The position numbers and the translations under genes were made by a program. DNA of 64,000 nucleotides, taken from contig NZ_LNYE01000029.1 of the NCBI RefSeq assembly GCF_001467695.1, forward strand, positions 741,769 to 805,768. The letters run 5' to 3'. The notes beneath the pieces were generated by a model. The model was not told the origin of the DNA. It did not search any database and saw nothing but the letters and a program-made list of their open reading frames with translations. This document shows positions 6,175 through 46,407 of the stretch, one piece after another; the stretch's first letter is position 1; each line of letters starts with the position of its first letter. Source of the DNA: Legionella gratiana. GTDB lineage: Bacteria; Pseudomonadota; Gammaproteobacteria; Legionellales; Legionellaceae.

Positions 6175-6690
6175 ATGACAAAACACCATAAGAAACAGGA
6201 AGACAATACCAATTACAGTTTTTTACTCAAATGCATGGCTGCACTCACAGCGGCTGCTGTAATCACTGCAGGGGTAATTGCAGCAGTAAGCCTCAAATCC
6301 GCCGCAGCAACCACTACCGCGATAGCGGCTAAAATGACGTTAGCATCCGCTTTTATTTTTACACCAATAATTCCAATTGCACTGGTTCTAATTGGCCTTG
6401 TTTGTGTATTACCCTTTTTATTTGGGCGCAATAACAGTACTTATATACCGAATCGCGTCGTTACAACTGGTTATAATAATTTTGGTTTTTATTCCACACC
6501 CAGTTATTCTACTGCGTCAGTTTATACAGATTCTCACTATCATGATCATGGTACAGGAACTGTTTATACCACCAGCAGCCATGTCCATGGACACGATAAC
6601 CCTACGCATGGCCACGATACTCATGTCCATGGACATGATAGCCATACACATGGGCATACCACTGGTGTACACATGCACGGTCACCGTTAA
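6175..6690 (+). CDS. Membrane protein with a histidine-rich C-terminal tail
   Basis: 171 residues, preceded by AAGGAG. Two hydrophobic segments (about residues 22-45 and 55-80) would anchor it in the membrane. A Tyr/Ser/Thr-rich linker follows. The last 45 residues are packed with His in HGHD/HVHGHD-type repeats and end HMHGHR. Such tails usually bind Zn, Ni or Co, so metal storage or delivery is a possible role, but no family is recognised. The repeats are encoded by near-identical codon blocks such as CATGTCCATGGACA, which suggests slippage or duplication. Confidence 0.75.
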   Translation: MTKHHKKQEDNTNYSFLLKCMAALTAAAVITAGVIAAVSLKSAAATTTAIAAKMTLASAFIFTPIIPIALVLIGLVCVLPFLFGRNNSTYIPNRVVTTGYNNFGFYSTPSYSTASVYTDSHYHDHGTGTVYTTSSHVHGHDNPTHGHDTHVHGHDSHTHGHTTGVHMHGHR

Positions 6691-6823
6691 AATGCCCGCT
6701 CTTCTCCCTCGAGGGGAAGAGATTTAAAAATAATTGAACAATACTTCCTCAAAAGAAGCTCTAATCACATATAAAGTTAATTTAATAACCAAATAGTGCT
6801 ATATTTAATCATAGAATCACTGA

Positions 6824-6988
6824 TTAACGTCGGCTCAATATACAAAATAAAATAATTTTTTATATCGAGCTTTTTTAGAGCGTTATCCCATACAGGCATT
6901 TTGCTCAGTATGCCTGTATGGGATAACGCCCATTTAGCGACGTAAAAAATCATTTCCATGCTTTCTACGTCGAACTCACGTTAGTTAA
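6824..6988 (+). repeat. Palindromic dispersed element, copy A
   Basis: About 165 bp bounded by TTAACGTCGGCTC and, inverted, CGAACTCACGTTAGTTAA. At its centre is a perfect 19-bp inverted repeat (6881-6899 / 6910-6928) starting CGTTATCCCATACAGG, with a 10-nt loop. A second copy lies inverted at 45234-45407 with the same arm, core and end order. It is noncoding and MITE-like. Confidence 0.75.
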
Positions 6989-16599: not shown

Positions 16600-17166
16600 A
16601 TGCTACTCATCATCGATAACTACGACTCATTTACTTACAATCTAGTACAATATTTTCAATGTCTAGACCAGGAAGTAACTGTTTTCACTCATGATCAAAT
16701 TAGTTTGACTCAAATAAAGACACTTAATCCTACCTACTTGGTGATTTCCCCTGGCCCCAAAGCGCCCAAGGACGCCGGCATTTCTATGGAGGTAATTCAT
16801 TCTTTTTATCAAGATATTCCTATATTAGGGATTTGTCTGGGACATCAATGTATGGCCCAAGTTTTTGGGGGTAAAATCATATCTGCCCCGGAAATAATGC
16901 ATGGAAAAACATCGACTATTACCCATAATCAGCAAGGAATATTTAAAAATATACCCAATCCATTCAAAGCAACCCGTTACCATTCCTTAGCGGTTGATAA
17001 AGACAGTCTTCCTGATTGTTTCTCAGTTGATGCATGGACAGATAATACCATTATGGCAATTTCACATCGCCAATACCCTATTTTTGGTCTACAATTCCAC
17101 CCAGAAGCAATATTAAGCCAGCATGGGCTAAAATTATTAGAAAATTTTTTAAAGTATGAAACCTAA
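16600..17166 (+). CDS. trpG: Anthranilate synthase glutamine amidotransferase component
   Basis: 188 residues of class I glutamine amidotransferase: oxyanion-loop and nucleophile motif LGICLGHQCMAQVFGG (Cys near residue 80) and the His/Glu of LQFHPEAIL. Supplies ammonia to TrpE for anthranilate synthesis and might also serve PabB. Linkage to trpD (overlap of 11 bp) and trpC supports trpG; trpE is not in the window. No clear Shine-Dalgarno is seen before ATG 16600. Confidence 0.92.
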   Translation: MLLIIDNYDSFTYNLVQYFQCLDQEVTVFTHDQISLTQIKTLNPTYLVISPGPKAPKDAGISMEVIHSFYQDIPILGICLGHQCMAQVFGGKIISAPEIMHGKTSTITHNQQGIFKNIPNPFKATRYHSLAVDKDSLPDCFSVDAWTDNTIMAISHRQYPIFGLQFHPEAILSQHGLKLLENFLKYET

Positions 17167-18190
17167 TCTTCTCTTTGAACACCTGATTGCGAAAAAGAAT
17201 TTAACCGCCACGCAAGTGCGTGGTGTCCTACATGCTTGCATGTCTGGCCAATATAGTGACGTGCAAATTGCTACCTTTTTAGCACTAATGCGCATGAAAG
17301 GTGAAACCACCGAGGAGCTAATCGCCGCCGCAGAGGTCATGCAGCAATTCGCTCGTACTATAGATTTAGGAACAAACTTAATTGACATAGTAGGTACTGG
17401 TGGGGACGGAAAAAATACCTTTAATGTTTCTACCACCTGTAGTTTTGTAGTGGCAAGTGCAGGATTTCCTGTTGCAAAACATGGTAATCGCTCCATCTCC
17501 AGTCGTAGTGGTAGTGCTGATTTATTAGAGAAAGCAGGCTTTATATTAAATCTCACCGATGAACAAATGCGAATCTGTATGAAACAATGTGGTTTAACTT
17601 TTTTATTTGCTCCACATTATCATCCAGCGATGCAACATGCTCGAACAGCTCGCCAACAACTAGGAATTAGAACCTTATTTAACTTACTTGGCCCATTAAT
17701 TAATCCTGCCCATGTAAAAAAACAAGTTGTTGGGGTATTTTCAGCAACGTGGCAACAACCTTTAGCTTCAGTTCTTGCTCATTTAGGAAGCGAAAGAGCG
17801 TTAGTAATCAGTTCACAGGATGGTATGGATGAAATCAGTATTGTAGCCCCTACGAATGTCGTTGAATATCGAGAAGGTAGATATGAACATTGGATTATTA
17901 ATCCTAAAGATTATGGCATCAAACATCACTCTTTAGATGAAATTATTGTGAACTCACCCAGTCAAAGTTTAGACTACATTCATGCGGTACTTTCCGGAAA
18001 ATCAGGGGCAGCACGAGATATAGTGCTGTTAAATTCTGCAGCTGCCATCTATTGTGCTGGCAATGAATTATCTTTTGAACAAGCATTGGAACAAGCTAAA
18101 ATCGCCATAGACAGTGGTAAAGCCAATCAATGCTTTACCAAACTTCGCCAATTAACTCAAACCCTAAACAAAGAATCAAATCATGAATAG
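17156..18190 (+). CDS. trpD: Anthranilate phosphoribosyltransferase
   Basis: 344 residues. The PRPP-binding loop [14 protein letters not shown] (about residue 81) and [18 protein letters not shown] are intact. Joins anthranilate to PRPP in tryptophan synthesis. It overlaps trpG and trpC. Its bases 17781-17947 recur at about 98% identity in the decayed chimera at 27657-27822, so part of this gene was once duplicated about 10 kb downstream. Confidence 0.97.
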
Positions 18191-18962
18191 TATACTGCAG
18201 CGTATTGCTCAACAAAAACTAGAAGAAATTAGTTTGGCTAAGCTAGAAAAGCCTTTAGAGGTACTAAAACAACAACCAATCATGGAACGAAGAGACTTTC
18301 TTACTGCCCTACAAGCTAAAGAAACACCAGCCATTATTGCAGAAATTAAACGAGCATCTCCAAGCAAAGGCATAATTCGAGAGAACTTTAATGCAGCAGA
18401 AATTGCAGCAATATATGACCAACATGGTGCACGCTGTCTGTCTGTACTTACTGATATTGAATTTTTTCAAGGTCATCCCGATTATATAGTCCAAGCAAAA
18501 ACACATTGTAAATTACCGGTATTGCGCAAAGATTTTATTATTGATACCTATCAAATTTATGAAAGTTTGGCTTTAGGTGCTGATTGTATTTTACTTATTG
18601 TTGCGTTACTTGATGACGTTCAGTTAGTTGAGTTTTGCCAATTGGCTCAAGAGCTTGGCATGGCTGTTCTTGTAGAAAGTCATAATCAAGAAGAACTCGA
18701 GCGTGCTTTGCGTTTGCCTACCCCATTAATAGGAATCAATAACCGCAGTCTTCATACATTTAATACAAATATTCAATTGAGTATTGATTTAAAACCCTAT
18801 ATACCCAATGACAGAATCACCATTACTGAAAGTGGGATTAACACTCATACAGACATCCGTTTGATGCAATCTCATGGAATAAATGCTTTTCTTGTTGGAG
18901 AAAGCTTAATGAGGGCTAAAGATATAGGTAACGCCTTGGACCAACTGATAAATGGAATCTAA
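18183..18962 (+). CDS. trpC: Indole-3-glycerol phosphate synthase
   Basis: 259 residues, monofunctional (no fused PRAI domain). The (beta/alpha)8 barrel motifs are [14 protein letters not shown] (catalytic Lys about residue 56), [21 protein letters not shown] and [11 protein letters not shown]. Closes the indole ring in tryptophan synthesis. It overlaps trpD by 8 bp. trpF, trpB and trpA do not follow. Confidence 0.97.
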
Positions 18963-19034
18963 TGACTATAATGAAGGCAAAGTATTTTGCATTTGCACAA
19001 TTACCTTGCCAATAGGGTGTGAGCGATACAATTA

Positions 19035-19181
19035 CTATTCTAAATTGGGTTCTGTGGGTTGTACTGGCTCAGGCTCAGGCAGTCCAGGCTCATCTGGCTC
19101 ATAAGGCTCTGGATTTTCTGGATACTCATCCGGCACAGTAGGATACTCATCAGGTTCTGGTATTTCGTCGCCGTTTTTCAA
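19035..19181 (-). CDS. Very acidic Pro/Glu-rich 48-residue small protein (candidate)
   Basis: Minus-strand ORF starting at TTG 19181 with AAAGGA about eight bases upstream. The peptide is built of Pro-Glu-Pro and DEYP-type units (for example EPDEYPTVPDEYPENP and GLPEPEPVQP), has one Lys and no Cys or His, and is predicted to be disordered. The codon-level regularity and the good Shine-Dalgarno argue that it is expressed. No family is known to me. It is antisense-oriented between trpC and the SDR gene. Confidence 0.5.
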   Translation of the reverse strand: MKNGDEIPEPDEYPTVPDEYPENPEPYEPDEPGLPEPEPVQPTEPNLE

Positions 19182-19234
19182 AATAGATCCTTTATTTTGT
19201 TACGAATATAGAAAATTATAGCAAAGGAAATAAA

Positions 19235-20074
19235 ATGAAAGTAGCTGTAATCACTGGGGCTGCAAGTGGAATTGGATTAGCATTAACCCAAGTCCATTTA
19301 CAACGAGATAGCTTTGTAGTTATGGTGGATAAAGATAGTGTGACGCTTAAAAATGAAGCCACACGATTATTGGCGTTATTTCCAGGAAAAGTCTTGGAAA
19401 TTTCCTGTGATGTAACGAAGCCTAACCAAGTAACGCAGCTGGCTCAACAAGTTCAGAACCAATTGGGACGTATCGATTGGATTTATAATAATGCAGGTAT
19501 TATAGGCCAATTAGGTCCAATTTGGGATTTATGTCCTGAACACGTTCAAAAAGTCATGGACGTTAATTTACATGGAATGATTTATATAATTCAAGCATTT
19601 ATTCCCTTCTTATTTCAACAAACGTTTTATTCGCATATCATCAATATAGCCAGCTTATATGCACTTTGTACTGGTTCGCAGACAGCCTCTTATTCCATGT
19701 CCAAACACGCCGTTTTAGCTTTATCTGAATCGCTATATTTTGATTTAGATCGTATGAAGAAACCGGTAAATATCTCCGTAGTTTTTCCTTCATTTACTGA
19801 TACAGCGCTTTTATCTCATAATGAGGATACCTCTTCGCAATTCCAAGAAATCTTAAAATCACTTTTATCTCATTCACGTCCCGCCCTTGATATTGCTGAG
19901 TATATAATACGTGAAGTAGAACAAAAAAAATTCTATATTTTTCCAGATCCAGAAGTTAAAGGATATTGTGAGGACCGCACTAAGGCGATGATATTTGAGG
20001 AAAATCCTCACGTTACTAACATTGAAAAATTAATGAGCACACTTATTAAACGGCAATCTAAAAACCCATCATAA
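19235..20074 (+). CDS. Short-chain dehydrogenase/reductase
   Basis: 279 residues, preceded by AAAGGAAA. Classical SDR: cofactor motif TGAASGIG at the N-terminus, NNAG about residue 87, catalytic Ser in NIASLYALCTG and YSMSKH (Tyr-x3-Lys). VDKD at the end of beta-2 (Asp) suggests NAD(H) rather than NADP(H). The substrate cannot be inferred. The gene is monocistronic, flanked by the two candidate small ORFs on the opposite strand. Confidence 0.9.
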   Translation: MKVAVITGAASGIGLALTQVHLQRDSFVVMVDKDSVTLKNEATRLLALFPGKVLEISCDVTKPNQVTQLAQQVQNQLGRIDWIYNNAGIIGQLGPIWDLCPEHVQKVMDVNLHGMIYIIQAFIPFLFQQTFYSHIINIASLYALCTGSQTASYSMSKHAVLALSESLYFDLDRMKKPVNISVVFPSFTDTALLSHNEDTSSQFQEILKSLLSHSRPALDIAEYIIREVEQKKFYIFPDPEVKGYCEDRTKAMIFEENPHVTNIEKLMSTLIKRQSKNPS

Positions 20075-20090
20075 AATTTAAATTATCCAT

Positions 20091-20249
20091 TTACGTCAAT
20101 AAAAATAAAATCGTAGGTTGGGAATGAATGATTGGATGTTCAACCAGAGCTGAACGTCCACCAGGTAGGTACATTTCATCCTCATATCCAGTAAATGTTG
20201 TTCCATTATTTGATGCTTCTTCTCCATGCTCATTGAAATCGCCTTGCAA
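20091..20249 (-). CDS. Candidate 52-residue small protein
   Basis: In the 434-bp gap after the SDR gene, a minus-strand frame opens with TTG 20249, seven bases after AGGA. The product begins MQGDFNEHGEEASNNG and continues with TFTGYEDEMYLPGG and a hydrophobic end. Composition and Shine-Dalgarno favour this frame over the overlapping ATG frame, but the ORF is short and could be chance. The remainder of the gap (20250-20508) shows only AT-rich sequence and the PEBP gene's Shine-Dalgarno. Confidence 0.3.
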   Translation of the reverse strand: MQGDFNEHGEEASNNGTTFTGYEDEMYLPGGRSALVEHPIIHSQPTILFLLT

Positions 20250-20508
20250 ATAATCATCCTATATTAAGTACATACGCGTTTTTTATATAAGAGTCCCTCA
20301 CTGTAATCCCCTGAAATTTCCAGGCAAATTTTTATTTATTTCTAATCTTCTCTTAATTGCCGCTTTTCTGTGGGAAGAAAATCATTTAACTCCTCATAAA
20401 AACACAACTGTATAGTGATCATGCTATGCTTAAATGAGTTACTTTTCTTAATTTATGGCAAATTAAGGTAAAAAAGACAGGAAAAATCACAAATATAAGG
20501 AGATTACT

Positions 20509-20958
20509 TTGAATTTCTCACTAGAAAGCCCAGCATTTAAGCACAATGCTTTGATTCCTTTGGAATATACTTGTGAGGGGGATAACCACCCACCACCCCT
20601 TATTTGGCACAATCCACCTCCGCATACACAATCGTTCGTTTTGATTATGGATGACCCTGATGCACCAATGGGGGTCTGGGTTCACTGGGTTTTATTGAAT
20701 TTGCCAGCTGATTACAGGCAACTTAGAACAGGAGCGACGCTACCTGCTTCAGTAATCACTGGTAAAAACAGCTGGGGGAAATCAAGTTATGGTGGTCCCT
20801 GTCCACCATCTGGCACGCACCGATATTTTTTTAAGCTCTACGCGCTTGATACGCTGCTTTCGTTGGATAAAACAGCGACGAAACAGATAGTAGAAAAAGC
20901 GATGCAACAGCATATTCTTGAGCACTGTGAACTGATTGGCAAATATACTAAATCTTAA
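20509..20958 (+). CDS. YbhB/YbcL-family Raf kinase inhibitor-like (PEBP) protein
   Basis: 149 residues, starting at TTG 20509 after AAGGAG. Phosphatidylethanolamine-binding fold motifs: FVLIMDDPDAPMGVWVHWV (the DPDAP signature) and YGGPCPPSGTHRYFF. Bacterial members are cytoplasmic or periplasmic with no established ligand; no signal peptide is present here. It appears monocistronic. Confidence 0.92.
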   Translation: MNFSLESPAFKHNALIPLEYTCEGDNHPPPLIWHNPPPHTQSFVLIMDDPDAPMGVWVHWVLLNLPADYRQLRTGATLPASVITGKNSWGKSSYGGPCPPSGTHRYFFKLYALDTLLSLDKTATKQIVEKAMQQHILEHCELIGKYTKS

Positions 20959-21063
20959 AATATTTTCCATAGCTTATTTCTCGAGAAACATATTTTTTAT
21001 TCGGAAGTGGCAGTAGAACCTGGAACTATTAATTTGGCTTATATGGCACGGAGTAGAACGAGT

Positions 21064-22224
21064 ATGAAAAAATCTATTGCTCAAATTTTACTTTATATCT
21101 CTTTTAGTATTCTAATAGTGCCAACCTGGGCTAAAACTACAGAAGCTGAAACAACTTCGATTTCTTTGCCCTATCCTGCGATTACTGGTCCACTTGTTGC
21201 CAATTCCAATCCATTTAACATCGAGGCAGGCCCATTCGAAAAAATTTATATCACTGGCGCTTTAAGCGGCTTTGGCCTGCGGCAGAACAATCCTGTAATG
21301 GGAAATCCGAACTCACTACTCGATTTAGATAATGGTCAGCTATTTATTCAGAATACCAGAGGTTTGTTGCAATTTTATGTTCAGGCAGGTGGTTATTCTT
21401 TACCCTCTCTTGGTACTCCCTATCTGCGCATGGACGATACGACTCGTGATTTTTTCGGCCCCGTTCCAGTGGCTTTTATCACATTGGCTCCTAGCGATAA
21501 TTTTTCGATAATGGCAGGAAAGTTATTCACGCTCATCGGCGCTGAAAATACTTTTACCTTCCAAAATTTTAATGTTGAGCGTGGATTGCTTTGGAATCAG
21601 ACCAATGCGGTGAATCGCGGTGTCCACGTACACTACACCCATGGTCCTGCCAGTGTCTCGGTTTCTTTAAACGATGGCTTTTATTCTGGGCGGCTTAACT
21701 GGCTTTCGGGACTAGTAACTTATACTATTAATTCAAAAAATAGCATAAGCGTAGTTGCTTCCGGAAATATCAAACATGACAACCAATGGAGTCTCGTGAC
21801 TCCATTGGCTCAGAATAACAGTCAGATTTATGATTTGATTTATTCTTATACCTCCGGTCGATTGATTATTGGTCCTACATTACAATTTACTCATGTTCCT
21901 AAGGACCCTGGTATCGGGCTACTGGACTCAGCTTCTTCTTATGGAGCTGGCTTAGCGATAAAATTTTCTTTCAATACCCATTGGAGCCTTACTGGGCGTG
22001 CCGAATATATTGATACAACAGGCGGAATTAATCTTGCCTATGGCCCTGGCAGCAATGCATGGTCATTAACACTAACACCAACCTATCAACGAGATATCTT
22101 TTTTGTGCGCGGTGAGGCGTCCCTTGTGGATGCAAATAATATTACAGCCGGTTCAGCCTTTGGTCAGGATGGTACAAAGCACTCACAAGAGCGATTGCTT
22201 ATTGAAACTGGTGTATTGTTCTAA
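21064..22224 (+). CDS. Outer-membrane beta-barrel porin, BBP2/OmpL-like
   Basis: The start is placed at ATG 21064, which begins a signal peptide (KKSIAQILLYISFSILIVPTWA); the frame runs upstream to 21007 without it. About 386 residues. The mature protein has alternating hydrophobic strands, the sequence GPVPVAFITLAPSDNFSIMAGKLFTLIGAE and a C-terminal strand ending in Phe (LLIETGVLF), as required for BAM insertion. It resembles the putative beta-barrel porin-2 family; the transported solute is unknown. Confidence 0.8.
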   Translation: MKKSIAQILLYISFSILIVPTWAKTTEAETTSISLPYPAITGPLVANSNPFNIEAGPFEKIYITGALSGFGLRQNNPVMGNPNSLLDLDNGQLFIQNTRGLLQFYVQAGGYSLPSLGTPYLRMDDTTRDFFGPVPVAFITLAPSDNFSIMAGKLFTLIGAENTFTFQNFNVERGLLWNQTNAVNRGVHVHYTHGPASVSVSLNDGFYSGRLNWLSGLVTYTINSKNSISVVASGNIKHDNQWSLVTPLAQNNSQIYDLIYSYTSGRLIIGPTLQFTHVPKDPGIGLLDSASSYGAGLAIKFSFNTHWSLTGRAEYIDTTGGINLAYGPGSNAWSLTLTPTYQRDIFFVRGEASLVDANNITAGSAFGQDGTKHSQERLLIETGVLF

Positions 22225-22314
22225 TACATTGATTTTTTAATTTTGTCCCTCAATGTTAGTGGAAGAAGTTGAAGTGATTAAATAAATACCTATTATTTTT
22301 TGAAGAAGCTAATC

Positions 22315-22376
22315 AAGGAGGAAGAAAGTGAGTTGCTTTAGTAACAGGTGGTATTGGAACAACCATATGGCAGAAA
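22315..22376 (+). pseudogene. Possible remnant of a short-chain dehydrogenase gene start (PhaB-like)
   Basis: A Shine-Dalgarno (AAGGAGGAAG) is followed by a stretch that in one frame reads VALVTGGIGTTIWQK, like the N-terminal cofactor motif of acetoacetyl-CoA reductases. The frame closes quickly, and no further SDR sequence is seen. The short length keeps this tentative. Confidence 0.25.
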
Positions 22377-22440
22377 AGGATGTGAGGTCTATACCAAAAT
22401 ACTAATAAGTTAGAAGTTTCGTCAATGAATTTATGCTATA

Positions 22441-22752
22441 ATGCACGAATTTTTTTATATTGATCACTTAATGATTACGCCAATTTTAGTTGCCAAAGAA
22501 ATAACTGTGCATGCTTATTCAATTAATGCCATCAATAATGCTTATTTTGGAAAAGGTCTAATTGATGGAAATAAAGGAGCCTTTGCTTCTTGGGAAAACG
22601 CAATCCAACAGACTATTTCTAGAGGGAAAATACCCGTCACAATAGTTAATGACATTTACAACAGGGCTGCCAATAACTCCAAGAAAATATTGGCTGATTT
22701 AAAGTCAAGTGAGACAGAAGAATTTACTAATAGCTCTTTTAGTTGTTTTTAG
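22441..22752 (+). CDS. Hypothetical protein upstream of the GH13-like gene
   Basis: 103 residues, or 93 from the second ATG (22471). No convincing Shine-Dalgarno is seen at either start. The sequence (for example FGKGLIDGNKGAFASWENA) looks like a small soluble helical protein with no motif recognised. It ends 13 bp before the GH13-like gene and could be co-transcribed with it. Confidence 0.4.
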   Translation: MHEFFYIDHLMITPILVAKEITVHAYSINAINNAYFGKGLIDGNKGAFASWENAIQQTISRGKIPVTIVNDIYNRAANNSKKILADLKSSETEEFTNSSFSCF

Positions 22753-22765
22753 GAAATATGATTTT

Positions 22766-24874
22766 ATGAATTATAATTTTTTAACCGAAGGCAACGGTAT
22801 TATTGCATGTTACGACATGTATCCCACGCAATTTCGCTCTATTGAAGATATGAAAAATTATTTGCCGAAATTGAAACAATATGGATTCAATGCATTATGG
22901 ATTAACCCCTTGCAATTACCTGGTGACATTAATGGTTTTTTCAAAACCGATAAGAATTTGGGTGTAAAAATAGGTAATGAAGTCACTCGTAGTTTGTATG
23001 CGATGAGCAACCCCGATCTTATTAATCCTCAATTTAGCCAGGGGACTGCTAACGATTCATTAGAAAAGATCCAGCAACTTAATCGAGACGCCTTAAAATC
23101 ATTTACCCAAAGGGCGAGAGAACTGGACATTGTCCCTATGTTTGATCTGGTCTTGAATCATGTTGCTATTGATTCTCCATTGTGCAAAGAAAAACCTCAT
23201 TGGTTCAAAGGGGCACATGAAGATTTTAAAGATGTCCGCGGATTTAATTATGATGATGAAAAAATCAGAAAAGAAATAATGAGGGAACTTTGGCAGCCCT
23301 ATATCCAACGTTATATGCTTGAATATGGATTTGATGGTGTACGTGTAGATGCTGTCGGATATGTACATCATGAGATTAGAAGAGAGGTATATGAATATAT
23401 CCATACCCTTTCTAAAGAACATAAAAAACCAAAGCCAGTCATCATTGATGAAGCTTTATTTAATAAACGGGAACTTGCTGAAGAGGTCCGTTATTTGAAA
23501 TTGCCTGGTGTAGGACCAACTCATATCACTACCGAAGTATATAATACTGAATTTACACTTGCTAGCACTGATATCCCAAGCAAAATATTGGAGGAAGAGC
23601 AATTAAAAGCATCTGTCGTTTTTTATCAAAAAGATGGCGTTTTACGTGAACAGGCCAAAGGAGGCTGTATTAATTTTTGCGGTAACCATGATTACCGTTC
23701 ATTGGCAATGACTATCTTATTTCAAATGGCCAAACAACGATTTCTCTCTGATCCTTTATATAATGATTTTATGAATAGTTATCAGTCATTCTCTCCTACG
23801 CCCAAAACTGCTAAAGGTAGCAAACAAGAGCTAGTAGATCCTTTAAAAACAACATTATTGTATTCTTATGTGAGTCAAATTAAAACAGAATTGGAATGTA
23901 AAAACGAAAAAACGCTACACGATTTTCAAACATTAGTATACGAAAAAATGGCTCTTACAGCACTTACAGGTAGTGGAGGCTGGTTCTTATTAAGTGGTGA
24001 TGAAACATGTGATGTGACTGCTAAAACGGTCTTTCAAAGAAAGGATGCTGTCGATAAATCTTATTATCCCCAGAGAGAGCATCACATATTTAGTGATAAG
24101 CCTGATATTGCCAATAAAGTATTAGAAAAAATGGCTGAAGATAATTTTTTTGAAGAAAATAGTGCCAATAATTGGTTGGTGGATCTATATCATGAATTAT
24201 CAAAACACCCTGAACTCCAACAACGTCTTTTGCTCCCTCATATTGAGAATATTAAACATCAAATTAATGCAGGTATCGCAACCGTACAATATAAATTTTC
24301 TTCATTACTCTCTGCTGAAAATTGTAGCATTGGCTTTGAGGCAGAAGATTTTATTGCTAAGACAAGAAATTCAGACAATGGTTGGCAAGGATTACACGAT
24401 AATGTTGCATTTATTAGCCAACTTAATTCCTTATTAAAAAAATTGCCAGCATCAGTTGCTGGTTTTTCTAGTGCTCTGGTACGTCTTCCAGAGAAACCAA
24501 ATTTAGTAATTATTGTTAGAAAAAATGGAAAGCAAATAGACGCACCCATTGATATTGTGGCGGTTAATCTTGATCAGACGAAAAATACTATATTAACAAA
24601 AAAAGACCTACAACAAATTGCTAAAAATTATTGTAATCAATACCTCTTATACGGAACCCTTGATGAAAAAAATCATCTATTAAAAAATCTATATAATCGC
24701 ATGCTAGAGACTGTTGGTCCTAATCAAATCCATGTGGATAGTAGCATTGTATATGATAGTTCTGAAGGGTTTGATTTGAGCAATTCATCGATTAAATTCT
24801 TCAAATCTCAACCAGAATCAAGAAGTTCGCAAGATGACGCATTGAATCCCAAAAATACCATCGTGAAGCAGTAG
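22766..24874 (+). CDS. GH13 alpha-amylase-family protein, paralogue 1
   Basis: ATG 22766 is used, with AGGAAA upstream; the frame extends to 22709 but overlaps the preceding ORF. About 702 residues. The TIM-barrel has all four GH13 regions: FDLVLNHV, GVRVDAVGY (nucleophile Asp), VIIDEALF (acid/base Glu) and FCGNHDYRS. No signal peptide, so it is cytosolic or delivered by another route. The roughly 300-residue C-terminal part is not a recognised starch-binding domain. It is tail-to-tail with a roughly 45% identical paralogue. In Legionella, unsecreted amylase-like proteins include Dot/Icm substrates, so an effector role is possible. Confidence 0.8.
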   Translation: MNYNFLTEGNGIIACYDMYPTQFRSIEDMKNYLPKLKQYGFNALWINPLQLPGDINGFFKTDKNLGVKIGNEVTRSLYAMSNPDLINPQFSQGTANDSLEKIQQLNRDALKSFTQRARELDIVPMFDLVLNHVAIDSPLCKEKPHWFKGAHEDFKDVRGFNYDDEKIRKEIMRELWQPYIQRYMLEYGFDGVRVDAVGYVHHEIRREVYEYIHTLSKEHKKPKPVIIDEALFNKRELAEEVRYLKLPGVGPTHITTEVYNTEFTLASTDIPSKILEEEQLKASVVFYQKDGVLREQAKGGCINFCGNHDYRSLAMTILFQMAKQRFLSDPLYNDFMNSYQSFSPTPKTAKGSKQELVDPLKTTLLYSYVSQIKTELECKNEKTLHDFQTLVYEKMALTALTGSGGWFLLSGDETCDVTAKTVFQRKDAVDKSYYPQREHHIFSDKPDIANKVLEKMAEDNFFEENSANNWLVDLYHELSKHPELQQRLLLPHIENIKHQINAGIATVQYKFSSLLSAENCSIGFEAEDFIAKTRNSDNGWQGLHDNVAFISQLNSLLKKLPASVAGFSSALVRLPEKPNLVIIVRKNGKQIDAPIDIVAVNLDQTKNTILTKKDLQQIAKNYCNQYLLYGTLDEKNHLLKNLYNRMLETVGPNQIHVDSSIVYDSSEGFDLSNSSIKFFKSQPESRSSQDDALNPKNTIVKQ

Positions 24875-24884
24875 AAAATCTCAA

Positions 24885-24938
24885 GATGGTCACTGGTAAA
24901 TGACCATCGAAAAAGTAGATTGGGTCGTTTCGCCCAAC
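24885..24938. terminator. Bidirectional hairpin terminator between the two GH13-like genes
   Basis: GATGGTCA (24885-24892) and TGACCATC (24901-24908) form a perfect 8-bp stem. A second weaker hairpin (TTGGG...CCCAA) follows by 24938. They lie in the 90-bp gap between convergent genes and would terminate both, although T runs are short. Confidence 0.5.
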
Positions 24939-24964
24939 ATTCAAACATAGGCCAGGTAGAGCAA

Positions 24965-27181
24965 TTATTTAACAAATTTTTTTGTCTCTATTGGATTTGT
25001 GTACTCTTTAAATGCTTGTTCCTTTTGCTCCACATCCTCGAGTAGATTAGTATCTTGTGTCGATAACTCTTCAACTTTATTCAAATCTATTCGCGAAGAT
25101 TGTTTATGGTGGAACAGACTAAATTGAGATGTTACATGGTGGCTAGGAAATTTTGTTACAATTGAATCAGAGATATGTATCTTTTGACCTTTGATACAGG
25201 ACATAATTGTCTGATAAGCCAAGTTAAACTCTGGTTGATTAATAGTCCAGTTGTAATGCTTCTCTTTTCCGTCATTGTAATAAGTATATTCAGGAATAAC
25301 TCGTTTTTGGAAATTACACGCTATTTGATGAATATCATTTTGAGTTAATGTTTCTTGTTGTGATGGCTCTAAATTAATAATCACAAGCTCCGTTTCAGAA
25401 TTTAGGCCCTCACCATTTTTGCGAACCACTGCCACTAAATTAGGCTTGGATTGAATAGGAATTACTTCGCTCCAAAAATGAAAGTTAGAAGAAGGCATAG
25501 CGCTTAATATCTTATTAATTTCTAACATGAAATCTTTCATATCATGTACTCCTTTCCAGCCACTTGCAGAAGTTCTGGGATCAGGAACATAATCATTTTC
25601 TATAAAATGAATCGTAATATTTTTTTCAGCGAGTCTTTTTTGTAACTCGGCACAAACTATTGTATCACCACAATTTATCTGATTTTTTAATGTCTCTAAA
25701 TAGGGAACCAATAATCTTTTTTGGGATTCTTCAGCATGAGATAACTCTCTAAATACAATTCCTGGATTTTCCTTATTGATATTTTCTATAGCCATTTGAG
25801 TTAATACATCCATAGTCTCTTTAAAGTGAGAATGTTCTGGACTAAAAAAATTATGGTTACGTTGAGCATAATAAGTTTGCTCAACTGCATGTGCATGTCT
25901 AAAAACAGGTTTTGCAAGTAAATCACCGGTTTCATCGCCAGAAAGGGCATACCACCCAGCACTAGACGTTAATGCGCATATCACTATTTTTTCCCTCATT
26001 TTACGTTCTATTTCGGCTATTGTGCTCTTATTATTTGCTAGAACTTCATTTTGGATATCTTTAACAAAAGAATAAAGAAAGACAGAAGATACTGCTTCAT
26101 CATATTCGTCACTTTCCTGTTGATACTTTTTATGAGCATAATACAGTGGGTGATTTTTTATGCGTTGTTCTGCCATTTCTTCCAAAATGGTCATTGCTAA
26201 TGAATTATGATCATGATTACCCGAAAAAGCGATGCATCCTCCATGCATATCAGGATGAAGTTTTCTGTTTCGATCTAGAAAAACTGCTTGTGCTTTGATA
26301 CCCTCCTCTTCTTTGCTCCAACTTGGAAGACCGCCGTATTCATCTCTATGAGCATAGTAAGTTCCCCGGGTAATATGGGTTGGACCATGGTCGGGAAGAA
26401 GTAAATTATCAACAACATCCGATAGTTTTTTCTTTTTATCGTTAAAAAGAAGCTCGTCAAGTATTACGGGCTTAGGCTTTTTATAAGTTTCAGCAAGCTC
26501 GTAGATGTATTTATAAATTTTTTTGCGTAATTCCGGTTCTAGATATCCTACAGCATCAACACGAACACCTTCAAAACCATAGTTTATCATGTATTTGAAA
26601 ATATAGGGTTTCCAAAATTTCTCAATAATTTCATCACGAATTTCAGGTTTTCTATAGTCAAAAGCAATTGCATCCTTAAAATCGGGATGTACCTTTTCAT
26701 GAAACCAATGAGGTTGCTCTGTTCTATGTCGTGAATCAGCGGAAACATGATTTAAAACTAAATCAAACATGGGCACCAAGCCACAGTGTCTGGCCTCATC
26801 GGTGAACTGTTTCATGATTTTCTCATCAAAATCTTTTTTTGCTTCGAGAGACATCTCGGAGGAAGCAGAACTGAAATAGGGACTTATTGTCTCGCTATCA
26901 GTCATGGCATATAAGCTTCGCGTCACTTCATTAAATGCTCTAACGCCATTTGTTTTATCCCGTTTAAATAAGTCTTTAACATCTCCAGCGGTTTGGATTG
27001 GGTTTATCCAAACTGCATTAAATCCCATTTTACTTAACACAGGAAGATAGCTTATCATCTCTTCTATGTTTTGAAACTGAGTAGGAAACATGTTATAGCA
27101 TCGTAAGATACCATTGCTATCCATGACTACACTTTTACTGCGAGAAGTCGTATTAGATGACTCAATTTTATTATGTGACAT
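24965..27181 (-). CDS. GH13 alpha-amylase-family protein, paralogue 2
   Basis: 738 residues, homologous to the preceding gene along the catalytic domain and beyond (shared CYNMFPTQF, FNAVWINP, EVTRSLYAM, DLVLNHV). GH13 catalytic regions are intact: GVRVDAVGY, VILDELLF, FSGNHDHNS. No signal peptide. The C-terminal 40 residues are acidic (VEELSTQDTNLLEDVEQKEQ), reminiscent of the E-block found in some Dot/Icm substrates. It probably acts on alpha-glucans, possibly host glycogen; that is inference. Confidence 0.8.
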   Translation of the reverse strand: MSHNKIESSNTTSRSKSVVMDSNGILRCYNMFPTQFQNIEEMISYLPVLSKMGFNAVWINPIQTAGDVKDLFKRDKTNGVRAFNEVTRSLYAMTDSETISPYFSSASSEMSLEAKKDFDEKIMKQFTDEARHCGLVPMFDLVLNHVSADSRHRTEQPHWFHEKVHPDFKDAIAFDYRKPEIRDEIIEKFWKPYIFKYMINYGFEGVRVDAVGYLEPELRKKIYKYIYELAETYKKPKPVILDELLFNDKKKKLSDVVDNLLLPDHGPTHITRGTYYAHRDEYGGLPSWSKEEEGIKAQAVFLDRNRKLHPDMHGGCIAFSGNHDHNSLAMTILEEMAEQRIKNHPLYYAHKKYQQESDEYDEAVSSVFLYSFVKDIQNEVLANNKSTIAEIERKMREKIVICALTSSAGWYALSGDETGDLLAKPVFRHAHAVEQTYYAQRNHNFFSPEHSHFKETMDVLTQMAIENINKENPGIVFRELSHAEESQKRLLVPYLETLKNQINCGDTIVCAELQKRLAEKNITIHFIENDYVPDPRTSASGWKGVHDMKDFMLEINKILSAMPSSNFHFWSEVIPIQSKPNLVAVVRKNGEGLNSETELVIINLEPSQQETLTQNDIHQIACNFQKRVIPEYTYYNDGKEKHYNWTINQPEFNLAYQTIMSCIKGQKIHISDSIVTKFPSHHVTSQFSLFHHKQSSRIDLNKVEELSTQDTNLLEDVEQKEQAFKEYTNPIETKKFVK

Positions 27182-27359
27182 TTTAAAAAATCCAAAAATT
27201 ACTCTTGTTGATCACATATTATCATAATTGATTTATTATTTTACAAGAAAGTTTTTGGATTCGCTTACTCTTAATTTTCCTGCCACATTAATATTTCATT
27301 AAGGTTTATTCTGAATCACTTTCTATGAAGGCCTTCTTATGCGAGGGAAAATTAAAATG
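27182..27359. other. Non-coding spacer upstream of GH13 paralogue 2
   Basis: AT-rich sequence that must hold the promoter of the minus-strand GH13 gene. The right end (about 27330-27359) may be badly decayed monooxygenase sequence continuing from the neighbouring fragment. Nothing else is recognised. Confidence 0.4.
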
Positions 27360-27664
27360 GCAAAAATAACTGTATCAAATTCTTCAAATTTACCATCAGT
27401 AAAATAAACTCGCTTACCGTCAAAATGAGTAATTCCTGGACGAGGAAATATTTCTCCATGACGAATAAGATAAAGAAGTTCCGTATTAATCGTTGGATGA
27501 ATTTCTAAGGGACCACAATCCGGCTTCATTAATTTATATTTTGCATAACGTCCTTGAAGAATACGCGCAAAAAAGCTCAAAACTTTCTGTCTTAACCAAG
27601 AAGGCATCCATCGAATTTTTGCCATAGCATATCATCCGTGGGCTTTCCAAAAACAAATTTAGGA
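27360..27664 (-). pseudogene. Fragment of a flavin-containing monooxygenase gene
   Basis: 27360-27664 matches 30898-31200 of the intact monooxygenase gene with about seven substitutions and a 2-bp insertion (near 27630) that shifts the frame. It encodes the region from PSWLRQKVLSFFARILQG to FEEFDTVIFA and has neither the N-terminal Rossmann motif nor the C-terminus. It is joined directly to a trpD fragment at a shared ATTTAGGAA. It is non-functional. Confidence 0.9.
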
Positions 27665-27822
27665 AGCGAAAGAGCGTTAGTAATCAGTTCACAGGATGGT
27701 ATGGATGAAATCAGTATTGTAACCCTACGAATGTCGTTGAATATCGAGAAGGTAGATATGAGCATCGGATTATTAATCCTAAAGATTATGGCATCAAACA
27801 TCACTCTTTAGATGAAATTATT
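27657..27822 (+). pseudogene. Fragment of trpD
   Basis: 27657-27822 matches trpD bases 17781-17947 with about three substitutions and one deleted base, which shifts the frame. The plus orientation is the same as in intact trpD. The left boundary coincides with the end of the monooxygenase fragment within a 9-bp sequence present in both parent genes. Similarity ends abruptly at GAAATTATT. Confidence 0.9.
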
Positions 27823-28047
27823 ACCACATTGTCGACGAGTACCTTTCAAGTTGTTGGCACGGCGTAAAAGCAAATAAAATTAAATTGAAACACGTTATCC
27901 CTATCCATTTTTCTTCGTTCACGCTCAGTTATAGATTCCCGCTCGATAGCTTTGACTTCGTCTATAGTTCGGATCGGGCGGGAATGACGTATTCTCGAAC
28001 CGTGAAAACCGAAAACTCATTGGCGTTGGGTATATCAAAATAAAGCT
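27823..28047. other. Non-coding spacer with an imperfect inverted repeat
   Basis: No ORF is recognised. ATTCCCGCTCGAT and, about 30 bp on, ATCGGGCGGGAAT form an imperfect inverted repeat (about 27935-27995) that could be a terminator for the minus-strand gene at 28048 or part of a dispersed repeat. Confidence 0.4.
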
Positions 28048-30153
28048 TTAAATCATCGGAACAACTTCCGATTTTTTTTCGCTTTCCATCTTTTCTTTTA
28101 TTAGATTCTCTATCATCTTGTTACCAAATAATATTGTATTACTTTCTACTTTAATATCGAGAGGCAATTTAGAACAATCAATATTCAGCGTAGATTGGGC
28201 TTTATATACATAACTTTGACCTTTATCAGGTTTAATAGCTGCCTCAATATTTTCCAGTGAATTAACTCTATTTTGAGTGACAATTTCTTGAATTTTAAAT
28301 CCCTTCTCTGTTAGTGTAAAATTAATCTCTCTTCTTTGGGCAGGGATATCTTCTTCATCTATATTACGAGCATCTGCTGGGGGATAACCTAACTCGTGCA
28401 TATATCTAAAGGCAGCTGAACAGACAGGATTCAAGACACCTCCTTGATGAAAAATCTCCATTAATTCATTGGCCACACTCTCTTTTTGTTCTTCTGCTAT
28501 GTTCTTTAATAGTTTATTTTTAAAAAAAGCTTTTAACTCATCAGTATTACTGAATAACTCTTCACTTGTTGGAAGATCATGTAACCTTTTATCTTCTTGT
28601 ATTATTTTTTGAATGGATTCTCCATTGATATTTACTGGGCCTGCATCCACTCTGCACCAATCTCTCAAAATATTATTATCTCCATTGCTTATCATATCAA
28701 CAGCAAAAGGGCTTGGTTCTGCTTTCATTTCACGCAGAGCATCTTTGAAAAAATGTACTGATTTAGCCAGTCCTTTTTCACGACCATGATACAGTGCCGC
28801 AGCCCCCATTGCCCCTGTTGCAGCAGCACCTGCACCAACACCAATAGTTGCCGCTAACCCCACTCCGCCAAGAACAGAGAGCAATAAACTGGTACCTCCA
28901 GTTGGTATTGCTGCTAACACACCAGCGGTTACCAATACAGCACACGAAACAACCAACAAACTGACTCCAAGCGCTTTCCAAGCAGTGGAAGATTTTCCAG
29001 ATACGCGAGTTGATAAGTTTGCTAAATCTTCAGCATTCTTTTTTGATTTCTCGGGTTCAAATCGCTCAATTAAGGCTTTATTAGTAGAGGATAATACTTG
29101 AATTAAATCACTTTGGTTGTTTGAATCTAGTTTTTCTTTACGCACAATTTCTTTGACATTGTTCAAAATTTCTGTGCCCTTTTCAAATAAATTTTTTTCT
29201 TTTTTATCTATCCTATCTTCTTCATTTTTTTGTAAATATTCGTTTAGAGTATTTTCAAGTCGATTAAGCTCAATTTGAACCAATTTTTTAATTGCGATAT
29301 CATATTCATTTGCATTTATCTTATTTTTATTGACATGAATTGTAGAAATAGGAATAGCTGGAGCTTTACGTTCTACATATTGCTCAATACTACTTATAAC
29401 GGCTGCGTTGTCATCAGCCATAATAATGCCTTTTATCCAAGCGGGTTTATTGGTCATAAAAGCTTCTAGCAAAAGACCTTTTGAGTGTGTATAGTTTGCA
29501 CGCCAAGAACGTTGATCAGCCAATAACTTAGCTACAATTCCTCTTTCATTCATGTCATGAGACAATTGAAATCCCGACTTTGCGACTTTACCTTTGCTTA
29601 AATCAGATTGATAAACAGTCACTGCTTCATTAAATGCACTACCCATAGTCATTTGATTTAAGGGCTTTTCAAGTATCTCTTTATAGGAAGGGAATTGCTT
29701 TGAAAGATTTAGATCACGCAAAATAGAGTCAAAAGCATCTCCCGTTAATTTTTTGCGTCCAAATTGAGGTAAATATAATTGCTTACTAAATGTCTTTGCA
29801 AGGCTTCCCGCTTCATCTCTTTGAACGTTATTTTCTGAATTGATCCATGCCAAATCCAAAGGAGTAATAAATCCATGCACTCTAAATCCTTGTTGTTCGA
29901 TTTGTTCCTTTATTTTTAAACGATGTTCAATATCCGAACTTTGAATCAGCATATCCGTAATAAAGTATATATCCCTAATGCCATTATTTTTTAAGCTATC
30001 GAGTAATGCCTGGTTTAGACCGTTTTCAAACTGGACAGTATCATCAATATCAAGGAATGCAACAATGCCATTATTTATTAAGCTATCGGATATTTCCTGG
30101 TTTGAACCATTTTCTAGCTGAACAGAATCATCCATCTCATTATGTTTAGTCAT
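28048..30153 (-). CDS. Effector-like protein with HAD-like N-terminus and hydrophobic C-terminal region
   Basis: 701 residues; GGGGAG lies before the ATG. The N-terminus has a HAD motif I-like sequence (VAFLDIDDTVQ, Asp35/Asp37) and, further on, KGIIMADDNAAVI, which could be motif III/IV. Residues 8-30 and 37-59 are a tandem repeat (DSVQLENGSNQ / DTVQFENGLNQ). The middle is coiled-coil-like and Lys/Glu-rich; about residues 395-455 are strongly hydrophobic, Ala/Gly-rich, like membrane-targeting segments of Dot/Icm effectors. The C-terminus is charged (EKMESEKKSEVVPMI). No exact family is recognised. Confidence 0.7.
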   Translation of the reverse strand: MTKHNEMDDSVQLENGSNQEISDSLINNGIVAFLDIDDTVQFENGLNQALLDSLKNNGIRDIYFITDMLIQSSDIEHRLKIKEQIEQQGFRVHGFITPLDLAWINSENNVQRDEAGSLAKTFSKQLYLPQFGRKKLTGDAFDSILRDLNLSKQFPSYKEILEKPLNQMTMGSAFNEAVTVYQSDLSKGKVAKSGFQLSHDMNERGIVAKLLADQRSWRANYTHSKGLLLEAFMTNKPAWIKGIIMADDNAAVISSIEQYVERKAPAIPISTIHVNKNKINANEYDIAIKKLVQIELNRLENTLNEYLQKNEEDRIDKKEKNLFEKGTEILNNVKEIVRKEKLDSNNQSDLIQVLSSTNKALIERFEPEKSKKNAEDLANLSTRVSGKSSTAWKALGVSLLVVSCAVLVTAGVLAAIPTGGTSLLLSVLGGVGLAATIGVGAGAAATGAMGAAALYHGREKGLAKSVHFFKDALREMKAEPSPFAVDMISNGDNNILRDWCRVDAGPVNINGESIQKIIQEDKRLHDLPTSEELFSNTDELKAFFKNKLLKNIAEEQKESVANELMEIFHQGGVLNPVCSAAFRYMHELGYPPADARNIDEEDIPAQRREINFTLTEKGFKIQEIVTQNRVNSLENIEAAIKPDKGQSYVYKAQSTLNIDCSKLPLDIKVESNTILFGNKMIENLIKEKMESEKKSEVVPMI

Positions 30154-30551
30154 TTTAACTCCCCATTTTCTAATAGGACCAATTGATTGAGTCCATAATT
30201 AGAAACTTTATCAAATCAGTCTTATAGGCAACTGTTGATCGCAGTCGAGTAGAGAATGAAATAAATTACTAAATAGAATATCGAACAAATAATTTCTGAT
30301 TTTGCAAAATATAGAATATTTTCGAATGCTACAATTACAACAGAATAGGCACTATTGTCCTTAATTTATGCATGAATTTGATTCATATTGTTTTGATAAA
30401 GCATAACCTACGATTTTTATGACTCTCTATGCAACAACCCCAATTGTACTGAGGATCAAAAAAGTATTAATCCTCATCCATAAATCAGGAGAGGGCGAGA
30501 AGATTGAGAATCATACCGCATAGGAGAAAAAATGCAGCTGGTCATTCCCTA
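30154..30551. other. Intergenic region with nothing recognised
   Basis: About 400 bp of AT-rich sequence between two minus-strand genes. No ORF with a Shine-Dalgarno, strong hairpin or known repeat is visible. It should contain the promoter of the HAD-like gene and the end of the monooxygenase transcript. Confidence 0.4.
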
Positions 30552-31862
30552 TTATGAGCCTAACATATCCAATAACTCTTTTCGGAATTTATGATAATCG
30601 ACCTCTAAAGCATGTCGAATATGCGATTTAAACCGGTAATGTGGTTTGTTCATTTCACGCTCGATCTTTTCATGTAAATTTTCGGGACGCTTCAGAGTTC
30701 CCATAATAATGCGTGCTGCAATTTTTGATTGATAATCAGCCAAGGGCCAAATGCATCCTTGTGGTTGACACAAACCAATAAAATACAATGTATCAAAATT
30801 AGGATGCATCATTTTTCGGTAAAGTGGAATCTTAGTGGAATTACTAAAATCAGCCACTGCCTTATCAAGAAACGGAAAACTTATTTTATAACCTGTAGCA
30901 AAAATGACTGTATCAAATTCTTCAAATTTACCATCAGTAAAATAAACTCGCTTACCGTCAAAATGAGTAATTCCTGGACGAGGAAATATTTCTCCATGAC
31001 GAATAAAATAAAGAAGTTCCGTATTAATCGTTGGATGAATTTCTAAGGGACCACAATCCGGCTTCATTAATTTATATTTCGCGTAACGTCCTTGGAGGAT
31101 ACGCGCAAAAAAGCTCAAAACTTTCTGTCTTAACCAAGAAGGCATCCATCGAATTTTTGCCACAGCATCATCCGTGGGCTTTCCAAAAACAAATTTAGGA
31201 AAAATATGATACCCTCTGCGCATGCTGACACAGGTATTAGGAGAAACTCTTGCTATTTCAACAGCTATATCACAAGCAGAATTACCCCCACCTATCACTA
31301 AAACACGCTGCCCTTTAAATACCGAAGCCTTTTTATATTGATGTGAGTGCAGTATTTGGCCAGAAAATTCACCAGGATATTCAGGCAAAACAGGATCCCA
31401 GTGATGTCCATTGGCCACTAATAAATAATCAAAATACTCTTCACGAGTGCCCTGAACATTTTCAAATTCAACTTTCCATTGGTTTAGATCGGTAGGCACA
31501 GCACTTAAGACATTGGTATTAAAATGAATGTACTTAGTTAAATCAAAATGATCTGCATAGCTTCGGAAATAATCTAAAACCAGACGATGCGAAGGATAAT
31601 CAGGATAATGTGGTGGCATTGGAAAATCTTCGAACTCAGACCAACGCTTTGAACTGATAATATGGGTTGTTTCATAAATACTGGAATGAGCATTTTCTTC
31701 ATCATAAATCCAATTACCACCAATTTGATTATTTTTCTCAAAAACAGTGATATTCGTTATACCTTGTTCTTGCAAATTTTTAATTGCAGCAAGCCCACTT
31801 GGACCTGCTCCTATCACACAGACACGAGGACAATGGTCTTTACCCATTAGCTTTATTTGCAT
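30552..31862 (-). CDS. Flavin-containing monooxygenase
   Basis: About 436 residues; ATG 31847 (MGKDHCP) is an equally possible start. FAD motif VIGAGPSGLAAIKNL at the N-terminus, the FMO fingerprint FSGQILHSHQY (about residue 165) and NADPH motif VIGGGNSACDIAVEI are intact. Oxygenates soft nucleophiles in N- or S-containing substrates; specificity is unknown. The 5' end overlaps the 3' end of the lipoprotein hydrolase gene, so the two are coupled. A roughly 300-bp internal part is duplicated at 27360-27664. Confidence 0.92.
   Translation of the reverse strand: MQIKLMGKDHCPRVCVIGAGPSGLAAIKNLQEQGITNITVFEKNNQIGGNWIYDEENAHSSIYETTHIISSKRWSEFEDFPMPPHYPDYPSHRLVLDYFRSYADHFDLTKYIHFNTNVLSAVPTDLNQWKVEFENVQGTREEYFDYLLVANGHHWDPVLPEYPGEFSGQILHSHQYKKASVFKGQRVLVIGGGNSACDIAVEIARVSPNTCVSMRRGYHIFPKFVFGKPTDDAVAKIRWMPSWLRQKVLSFFARILQGRYAKYKLMKPDCGPLEIHPTINTELLYFIRHGEIFPRPGITHFDGKRVYFTDGKFEEFDTVIFATGYKISFPFLDKAVADFSNSTKIPLYRKMMHPNFDTLYFIGLCQPQGCIWPLADYQSKIAARIIMGTLKRPENLHEKIEREMNKPHYRFKSHIRHALEVDYHKFRKELLDMLGS

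Positions 31863-45233: not shown

Positions 45234-46407
<1,174 letters not shown>

What the first reader, a model, noticed from the sequence alone, without database searches (positions are those of the whole stretch)
27360..27822. Chimeric fossil: monooxygenase fragment fused to a trpD fragment
27360-27664 repeats 30898-31200 of the flavin monooxygenase gene (about 7 substitutions plus a 2-bp insertion), and 27657-27822 repeats 17781-17947 of trpD (about 3 substitutions plus a 1-bp deletion). The two parents lie 13 kb apart and are unrelated in function, yet both pieces show the same divergence of about 2%, so they arose together. A misassembly would be identical to its sources; the shared mutations and frameshifts argue against that.
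Basis: seen in the sequence. Interest (0 to 1): 0.8.

Follow-up and report, generated by a model that had tools for sequence, protein, structure and literature searches.

The report
Scar of an old segment duplication
A 463-base stretch of a Legionella chromosome is a dead patchwork of pieces of two nearby genes, most likely the join left behind by a once-duplicated segment; it is real genome history, but an ordinary kind of scar with no sign of a function.

Summary
Window 27360-27665 copies 30898-31201 of a flavin-monooxygenase gene (97%) and 27657-27822 copies 17781-17947 of trpD (98%). These are the only matches in the own genome; none of 44 other Legionella genomes shows a match spanning the join or a third copy. 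It is no misassembly: the fossil carries its own substitutions and frameshifts, and at four sites it keeps the base of all or most of the nearest relatives where the intact monooxygenase gene has changed.

The parents were not always 13 kb apart. In relatives SDR and monooxygenase are neighbours, 34-498 bp apart in 29 of 30 loci, so the parental points lie about 3-3.5 kb apart. The window has about 10.4 kb of extra genes there, with the fossil inside. The pieces share 9 bp at their join and keep strand and outward order: the geometry of a tandem-duplication join point.

Best reading: a short-repeat tandem duplication, later whittled down to its join. Main rival: two fragments captured or copied into a break; the genome encodes Ku and LigD. 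The deletions are inferred. No function is indicated; interest modest.

The parts
27360..27665 (-). fossil copy of the middle of the flavin-monooxygenase gene (parent 30898-31201), with a 2-bp insertion
27657..27822 (+). fossil copy of the middle of trpD (parent 17781-17947), with a 1-bp deletion
27657..27665 (.). 9-bp microhomology ATTTAGGAA at the join, present in both parents (31193-31201 and 17781-17789)
17156..18190 (+). intact trpD (parent)
18183..18962 (+). trpC, part of the segment thought to have been duplicated
   Evidence: name from homologous order, recalled
19235..20074 (+). short-chain dehydrogenase (SDR); its end is the left border of the extra block
30552..31862 (-). intact flavin-monooxygenase gene (parent); its 3' end is the right border of the extra block
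20093..30528 (.). 10.4-kb block absent from this place in the relatives examined: PEBP-family gene, porin, DUF5630 tail, two alpha-amylase-like genes, the fossil, a 701-aa ORF
27323..27625 (-). 100-aa open frame left inside the monooxygenase fossil; truncated at both ends against the parent, taken as chance residue

Best explanation
A non-functional scar: the join point of a former tandem duplication. Shown: the monooxygenase piece runs, on the same strand and in outward order, into the trpD piece across 9 bp that both parents share; this is exactly the sequence made when a segment starting in trpD (17781) and ending in the monooxygenase gene (31201) is repeated head to tail. Inferred: an illegitimate recombination between the two 9-bp repeats duplicated the trpD-trpC-SDR-monooxygenase segment (about 3.4 kb, or about 13 kb if the extra genes had already arrived); the redundant DNA on both sides of the join was then removed by nonhomologous deletions, or replaced by incoming genes, while one good copy of every gene was kept. 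The 463-bp join is the only redundant piece left and now decays without constraint.
For: Same strand and outward order of both pieces, lying between their parents, as a tandem-duplication join must. 9-bp shared repeat at the join; 12 of 200,000 random junctions reach this. In relatives the two parental points lie about 2.9-3.5 kb apart in 25 of 28 loci. The fossil groups with its own parent, support 0.933, against 19 relatives, and one trpD site shows it split off after this lineage left the others. Five sure fossil-branch substitutions in about 461 bp plus two frameshifting indels, most of them altering the protein, while the four changes assigned to the intact gene are silent (codon reading by eye). 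Own-genome search shows no other copies. Tandem duplication across designed 9-bp borders is reported in E. coli (PMC11111574, abstract and passages).
Against: Two further nonhomologous events must be assumed, and homologous recombination normally removes a tandem duplication without a scar (recalled). No trace of the rest of the second copy was found: of seven spacers tested, six looked like shuffles; 30154-30528 beat 40 of 40 and later 150 of 150 shuffles, but only by an inverted AT-rich 34-column match that 8 of 54 other window places equalled. No conspecific genome was available to show the duplication or its stages. In a Salmonella study the deduced cut-off for confirmed duplications was 11 bp, and the one 9-bp candidate tested was not confirmed (PMC3411829, passages). 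The outer edges show no microhomology that can be judged, because the undisturbed sequence is unknown.
Confidence: 0.58

Rival explanations
1. One-step insertion at a break: a double-strand break between the amylase-like gene and the 701-aa ORF was closed with two short pieces of nearby DNA, either ligated in (Ku/LigD end joining) or copied by template switching, the two pieces being held together by the 9-bp repeat.
For: Needs one complex event, not three. The genome encodes a Ku protein beside a LigD-type ligase; Ku is found in 32 of 45 Legionella genomes, own included. Short captured or copied inserts from close by (up to 619 bp) are described in vertebrates (PMC2671141, abstract only).
Against: Strand, order and position between the parents would be chance: one of eight arrangements of two fragments. 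If 27359 and 27823 once adjoined, both outer junctions have no shared bases (read by eye). My searches listed no bacterial example of a two-piece captured insert of this size; they cover only the open-access library.
Confidence: 0.28
2. Transformation patch: DNA of a sister strain, already rearranged, was taken up and integrated with the extra genes, bringing the chimera along.
For: The extra block has a patchy distribution: porin in 7 of 45, amylase-like pair in 3 of 45 genomes, own included. Uptake-driven tandem duplication is described in pneumococcus (PMC3784515, abstract). Four silent changes sit within 19 bp of the intact gene, as after a short conversion tract.
Against: The fossil is 97-98% like its own parents and at most 91% (monooxygenase) or 86% (trpD) like any other genome searched, so a foreign-species source is excluded; a same-species source cannot be tested. 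It also moves the question of how the chimera formed to another strain.
Confidence: 0.1
3. Assembly or sequencing artefact.
For: The assembly has 31 contigs; no raw reads were available.
Against: The stretch lies inside contig C29, at 769128-769590 of it (one search gives the window's placement). It differs from its parents by ten substitutions and two indels, and holds bases of the relatives that the intact gene lacks, which a chimeric contig cannot produce.
Confidence: 0.02
4. A selected element: a functional chimeric gene or RNA.
For: A 100-aa frame is open over most of the monooxygenase piece.
Against: Frameshifts in both pieces, loss of both ends of the enzyme, no Rfam match in 20000-31000, no counterpart in 44 relatives.
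Confidence: 0.02

Closest known systems
Short-repeat tandem duplication in bacteria (E. coli constructs with 9-bp borders, PMC11111574; Salmonella junction survey, PMC3411829)
   Same: Join of the far end of a segment to its near end, same strand, with a repeat of about this size at the join (9 bp in the E. coli design).
   Different: Those are fresh duplications with both copies present. Here only the join remains, embedded among unrelated genes. In the Salmonella survey confirmed duplications had 11 bp or more, and a 9-bp candidate was not confirmed.
Repair-mediated capture of nearby DNA in vertebrates (PMC2671141, abstract)
   Same: Short linked extra copies of local sequence, within the size range reported there.
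   Different: Known from eukaryotes; usually described as one piece from one source, here two pieces in join-point geometry.
Merodiploids made by natural transformation (PMC3784515, abstract)
   Same: Tandem duplication in a bacterium, with a proposed link to DNA uptake.
   Different: Those span about 100-900 kb and use long repeats; here about 3.4-13 kb and 9 bp.
Ordinary partial-gene pseudogenes
   Same: Truncated, frameshifted gene pieces.
   Different: Two unrelated genes joined at a shared 9-mer, with a readable geometry.

Membership tests
Tandem-duplication join point | End of the downstream parent joined to start of the upstream parent on the same strand | tested here: met
Tandem-duplication join point | Direct repeat or microhomology shared by both parents at the join | tested here: met
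   9 bp; 12 of 200,000 random junctions
Tandem-duplication join point | Lies between the two outer copies | tested here: met
   17.8 kb < 27.4-27.8 kb < 31.2 kb
Tandem-duplication join point | Both full copies of the segment present | tested here: not met
   trpC and SDR occur once in the window; so it is filed as a remnant, not as a duplication
Tandem-duplication join point | Intermediate stages in conspecific strains | not testable with these tools
   one genome per species is held
Break repair by captured or copied fragments | Flanks adjoin exactly in an uninserted relative | not testable with these tools
   no searched relative has the flanking genes here
Break repair by captured or copied fragments | End-joining genes present | tested here: met
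   Ku and LigD; permissive only
Break repair by captured or copied fragments | Microhomology at the outer junctions | tested here: inconclusive
   none if the flanks once adjoined; unknown if sequence was lost (by eye)
Mobile element or its scar | Transposase or integrase gene in the block | tested here: not met
   none among the Pfam matches of ten proteins, six of them in the block; IS ends were not searched for
Functional gene | Open, conserved frame | tested here: not met
   frameshifts; no match across the join in 44 relatives

The most novel reading that the evidence does not exclude
The duplication came first, in the compact ancestral locus of about 3.4 kb, and the redundant stretch it created between the good SDR and the good monooxygenase gene served as a harmless landing pad for two blocks of acquired genes (20.1-27.4 kb and 27.8-30.5 kb), which overwrote all of it except the join. 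Transient duplications would then be a route by which islands settle without costing the host a gene, and join-point fossils inside islands would be their signature.
Probability: 0.22. Interest if true: 0.5.

Novelty: new member of a known kind. Interest (0 to 1): 0.25.

Why it matters
Tandem duplications are common but usually vanish without trace. A dated, readable remnant with its 9-bp join shows that they can leave fossils, and that such fossils can be told from misassemblies by polarising the changes against relatives. If such fossils prove common at island borders, the landing-pad idea becomes testable by genome scan. On its own this is a local accident.

Tried and rejected
Misassembly: rejected on fossil-specific changes and retained ancestral bases. 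Foreign-species source: rejected, nearest other genomes 91% and 86%. Further remnants of the second copy: seven spacers tested against trpD-SDR and monooxygenase; one (30154-30528) beat its shuffles, but 8 of 54 other window places scored as high with it, so I read it as chance. Plasmid origin of 26800-30551: no match in the plasmid collection, distant mode. Known RNA: none in 20000-31000. Island genes at this locus in relatives: not found there; porin, amylase-like pair and parts of the 701-aa ORF occur at other places in some. A link between the permuted order of the amylase-like pair and the fossil: its join would have to lie between the two genes, and the fossil does not, so dropped. Papers: nine searches answered; none of the listed rows described a two-gene join-point fossil of this kind, but only listings were seen for nearly all, and subscription journals are mostly missing. 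Dynamics of Legionella genomes (PMC5025774, passages only) has no occurrence of 'duplication'. Short-patch double illegitimate recombination in Acinetobacter was considered from recall; one search gave only side mentions in its listing. I made no count of such fossils genome-wide; a self-comparison of 42 sequences (window plus 41 loci, 690,275 bases) showed no second pair of abutting gene pieces that I noticed, by eye.

Full report
What was checked. The finding says that 27360-27822 is a fusion of a monooxygenase piece and a trpD piece. Repeat search and pairwise alignment confirm both: 27360-27665 against 30898-31201 (97.06%, seven substitutions and a 2-bp insertion) and 27657-27822 against 17781-17947 (97.6%, three substitutions and a 1-bp deletion). 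In a self-search the E-values are 1.4e-144 and 1.2e-75. In the own genome (3,926,196 bases, 31 contigs) the stretch matches itself and its two parents and nothing else.

Where it is. Search and named records place the window in Legionella. The nearest records by the monooxygenase are L. santicrucis (93% of amino acids) and L. longbeachae (91%); the own record is not named.

The locus in relatives. In relatives the order is trpG-trpD-trpC-SDR-monooxygenase-orf248-xseA. Of 41 loci given to (20, 21), 40 show the monooxygenase, and 30 show SDR and monooxygenase on one stretch: the gap between them is 34-498 bp in 29 and 1,141 bp in one. From trpD start to monooxygenase start it is 4.2-4.8 kb in 25 of 28 loci and 5.3-5.9 kb in three, against 14.7 kb in the window. 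Taking off the offsets in the two genes, the two points joined in the fossil lie about 2.9-3.5 kb apart in those 25. In the window similarity to relatives stops at 20092 and resumes at 30529 at the earliest. The 10.4 kb between hold a PEBP-family gene, a porin, a DUF5630 tail, two alpha-amylase-like genes (weak Pfam matches, one under and one over the curated cut-off), the fossil, and a 701-aa ORF without Pfam match. Porin relatives occur in 7 of 45 genomes, amylase-like relatives in 3 of 45, and partial relatives of the 701-aa ORF in 13 of 45, own genome included each time.

Not a misassembly. Against 16 relatives (monooxygenase) and 15 (trpD), two monooxygenase substitutions and the insertion are unique to the fossil (16 of 16 relatives agree with the parent). 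Four differences are better placed in the intact gene: at two sites all four nearest relatives (G020, G021, G006, G010) carry the fossil's base, at two others three of four. One site is split two to two. In trpD two substitutions and the deletion are unique to the fossil (15 of 15), and at the third site relatives, parent and fossil all differ. By eye from the frames, the four changes in the intact gene are silent, whereas most fossil changes alter the protein or the frame. A tree of the monooxygenase piece with 19 relatives joins fossil and parent with support 0.933. So it is a real, unconstrained copy made in this lineage.

Age. Five sure fossil-branch substitutions in about 461 bp are about 1.1%. 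Fourfold-degenerate differences between the window and the four nearest relatives are 34-43% (monooxygenase) and 42-58% (trpD). The copy is therefore young against the species split; with five events the figure is rough.

The join. Both parents carry ATTTAGGAA, at 17781-17789 and 31193-31201, and the fossil switches within it. Of 200,000 random junctions between the two genes 12 share 9 bp or more. The same word also occurs at trpD 17364. The monooxygenase piece runs into the trpD piece on the same strand with the downstream parent first, and the fossil lies between its parents. Of the eight arrangements of two fragments this is the one that a head-to-tail duplication of 17781-31201 must give.

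Mechanism. I take the tandem duplication as most likely (0.58). Shown: the join, its repeat, its geometry, its reality. Inferred: that the duplication existed, and that two later deletions or replacements removed the rest. Either the 10.4-kb block was there first and about 13 kb was doubled, or the compact locus of about 3.4 kb was doubled and the extra genes overwrote the redundant part. An E. coli study reports precise tandem duplication across 9-bp borders at about 3.6e-11 under selection (PMC11111574, abstract and passages). Against it: a Salmonella survey deduced 11 bp as the lower bound of confirmed duplications, and its one tested 9-bp duplication candidate was negative (PMC3411829, passages); and such duplications normally collapse without a scar.

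The rival. One event at a break could insert two local pieces. The genome has Ku beside a LigD-type gene with 3'-phosphoesterase and ligase domains; Ku is in 32 of 45 genomes, so it is not special to this species. I give this 0.28. The test is a strain of the same species with the extra genes and no fossil.

Traces of the lost copy. Seven spacers were compared with trpD-SDR and monooxygenase. Six were like shuffles (the best of these six, 27823-27914, was equalled by 4 of 40). 30154-30528 beat 40 of 40 and then 150 of 150 shuffles through an inverted AT-rich match, but 8 of 54 other window places did as well. I count this as no trace.

Limits. One genome per species is held; no reads; the relative searches score a limited number of candidates per genome (14). 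No bacterial paper describing the same thing was seen in nine answered searches of an open-access library, mostly as listings.

Verdict. Real, dead, explained well enough by known processes. New member of a known kind; interest 0.25.

Noticed in passing
22441-27181; G033 and G003 (L034-L036): The two amylase-like genes are convergent here (GHa +, GHb -), but divergent in the two other genomes that have both, with the DUF5630-tail frame still upstream of GHa: a permuted order.
   Followed up: partly
30898-31201, columns 183-201 of the alignment: Four silent differences of the intact monooxygenase gene lie within 19 bp, as after a short conversion tract; no relative printed has the same combination.
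   Followed up: partly
27915-28036: About 120 bp of a dispersed intergenic repeat (80% to G000:C23:277187-277307, shorter pieces elsewhere, also in G010) just beyond the 701-aa ORF.
   Followed up: partly
L145 (G000:C22 around 23 kb): Ku gene beside a LigD-type gene; Ku in 32 of 45 Legionella genomes, in some of them as several copies.
   Followed up: partly
   Followed up: no
6823-6988 and 45234-45404: Inverted repeat of about 170 bp, 76% identical, 38 kb apart.
   Followed up: no
29977-30139: Two 76-bp direct repeats (82%) at the start of the 701-aa ORF.
   Followed up: no
6580-6663: 21-bp-spaced direct repeats.
   Followed up: no
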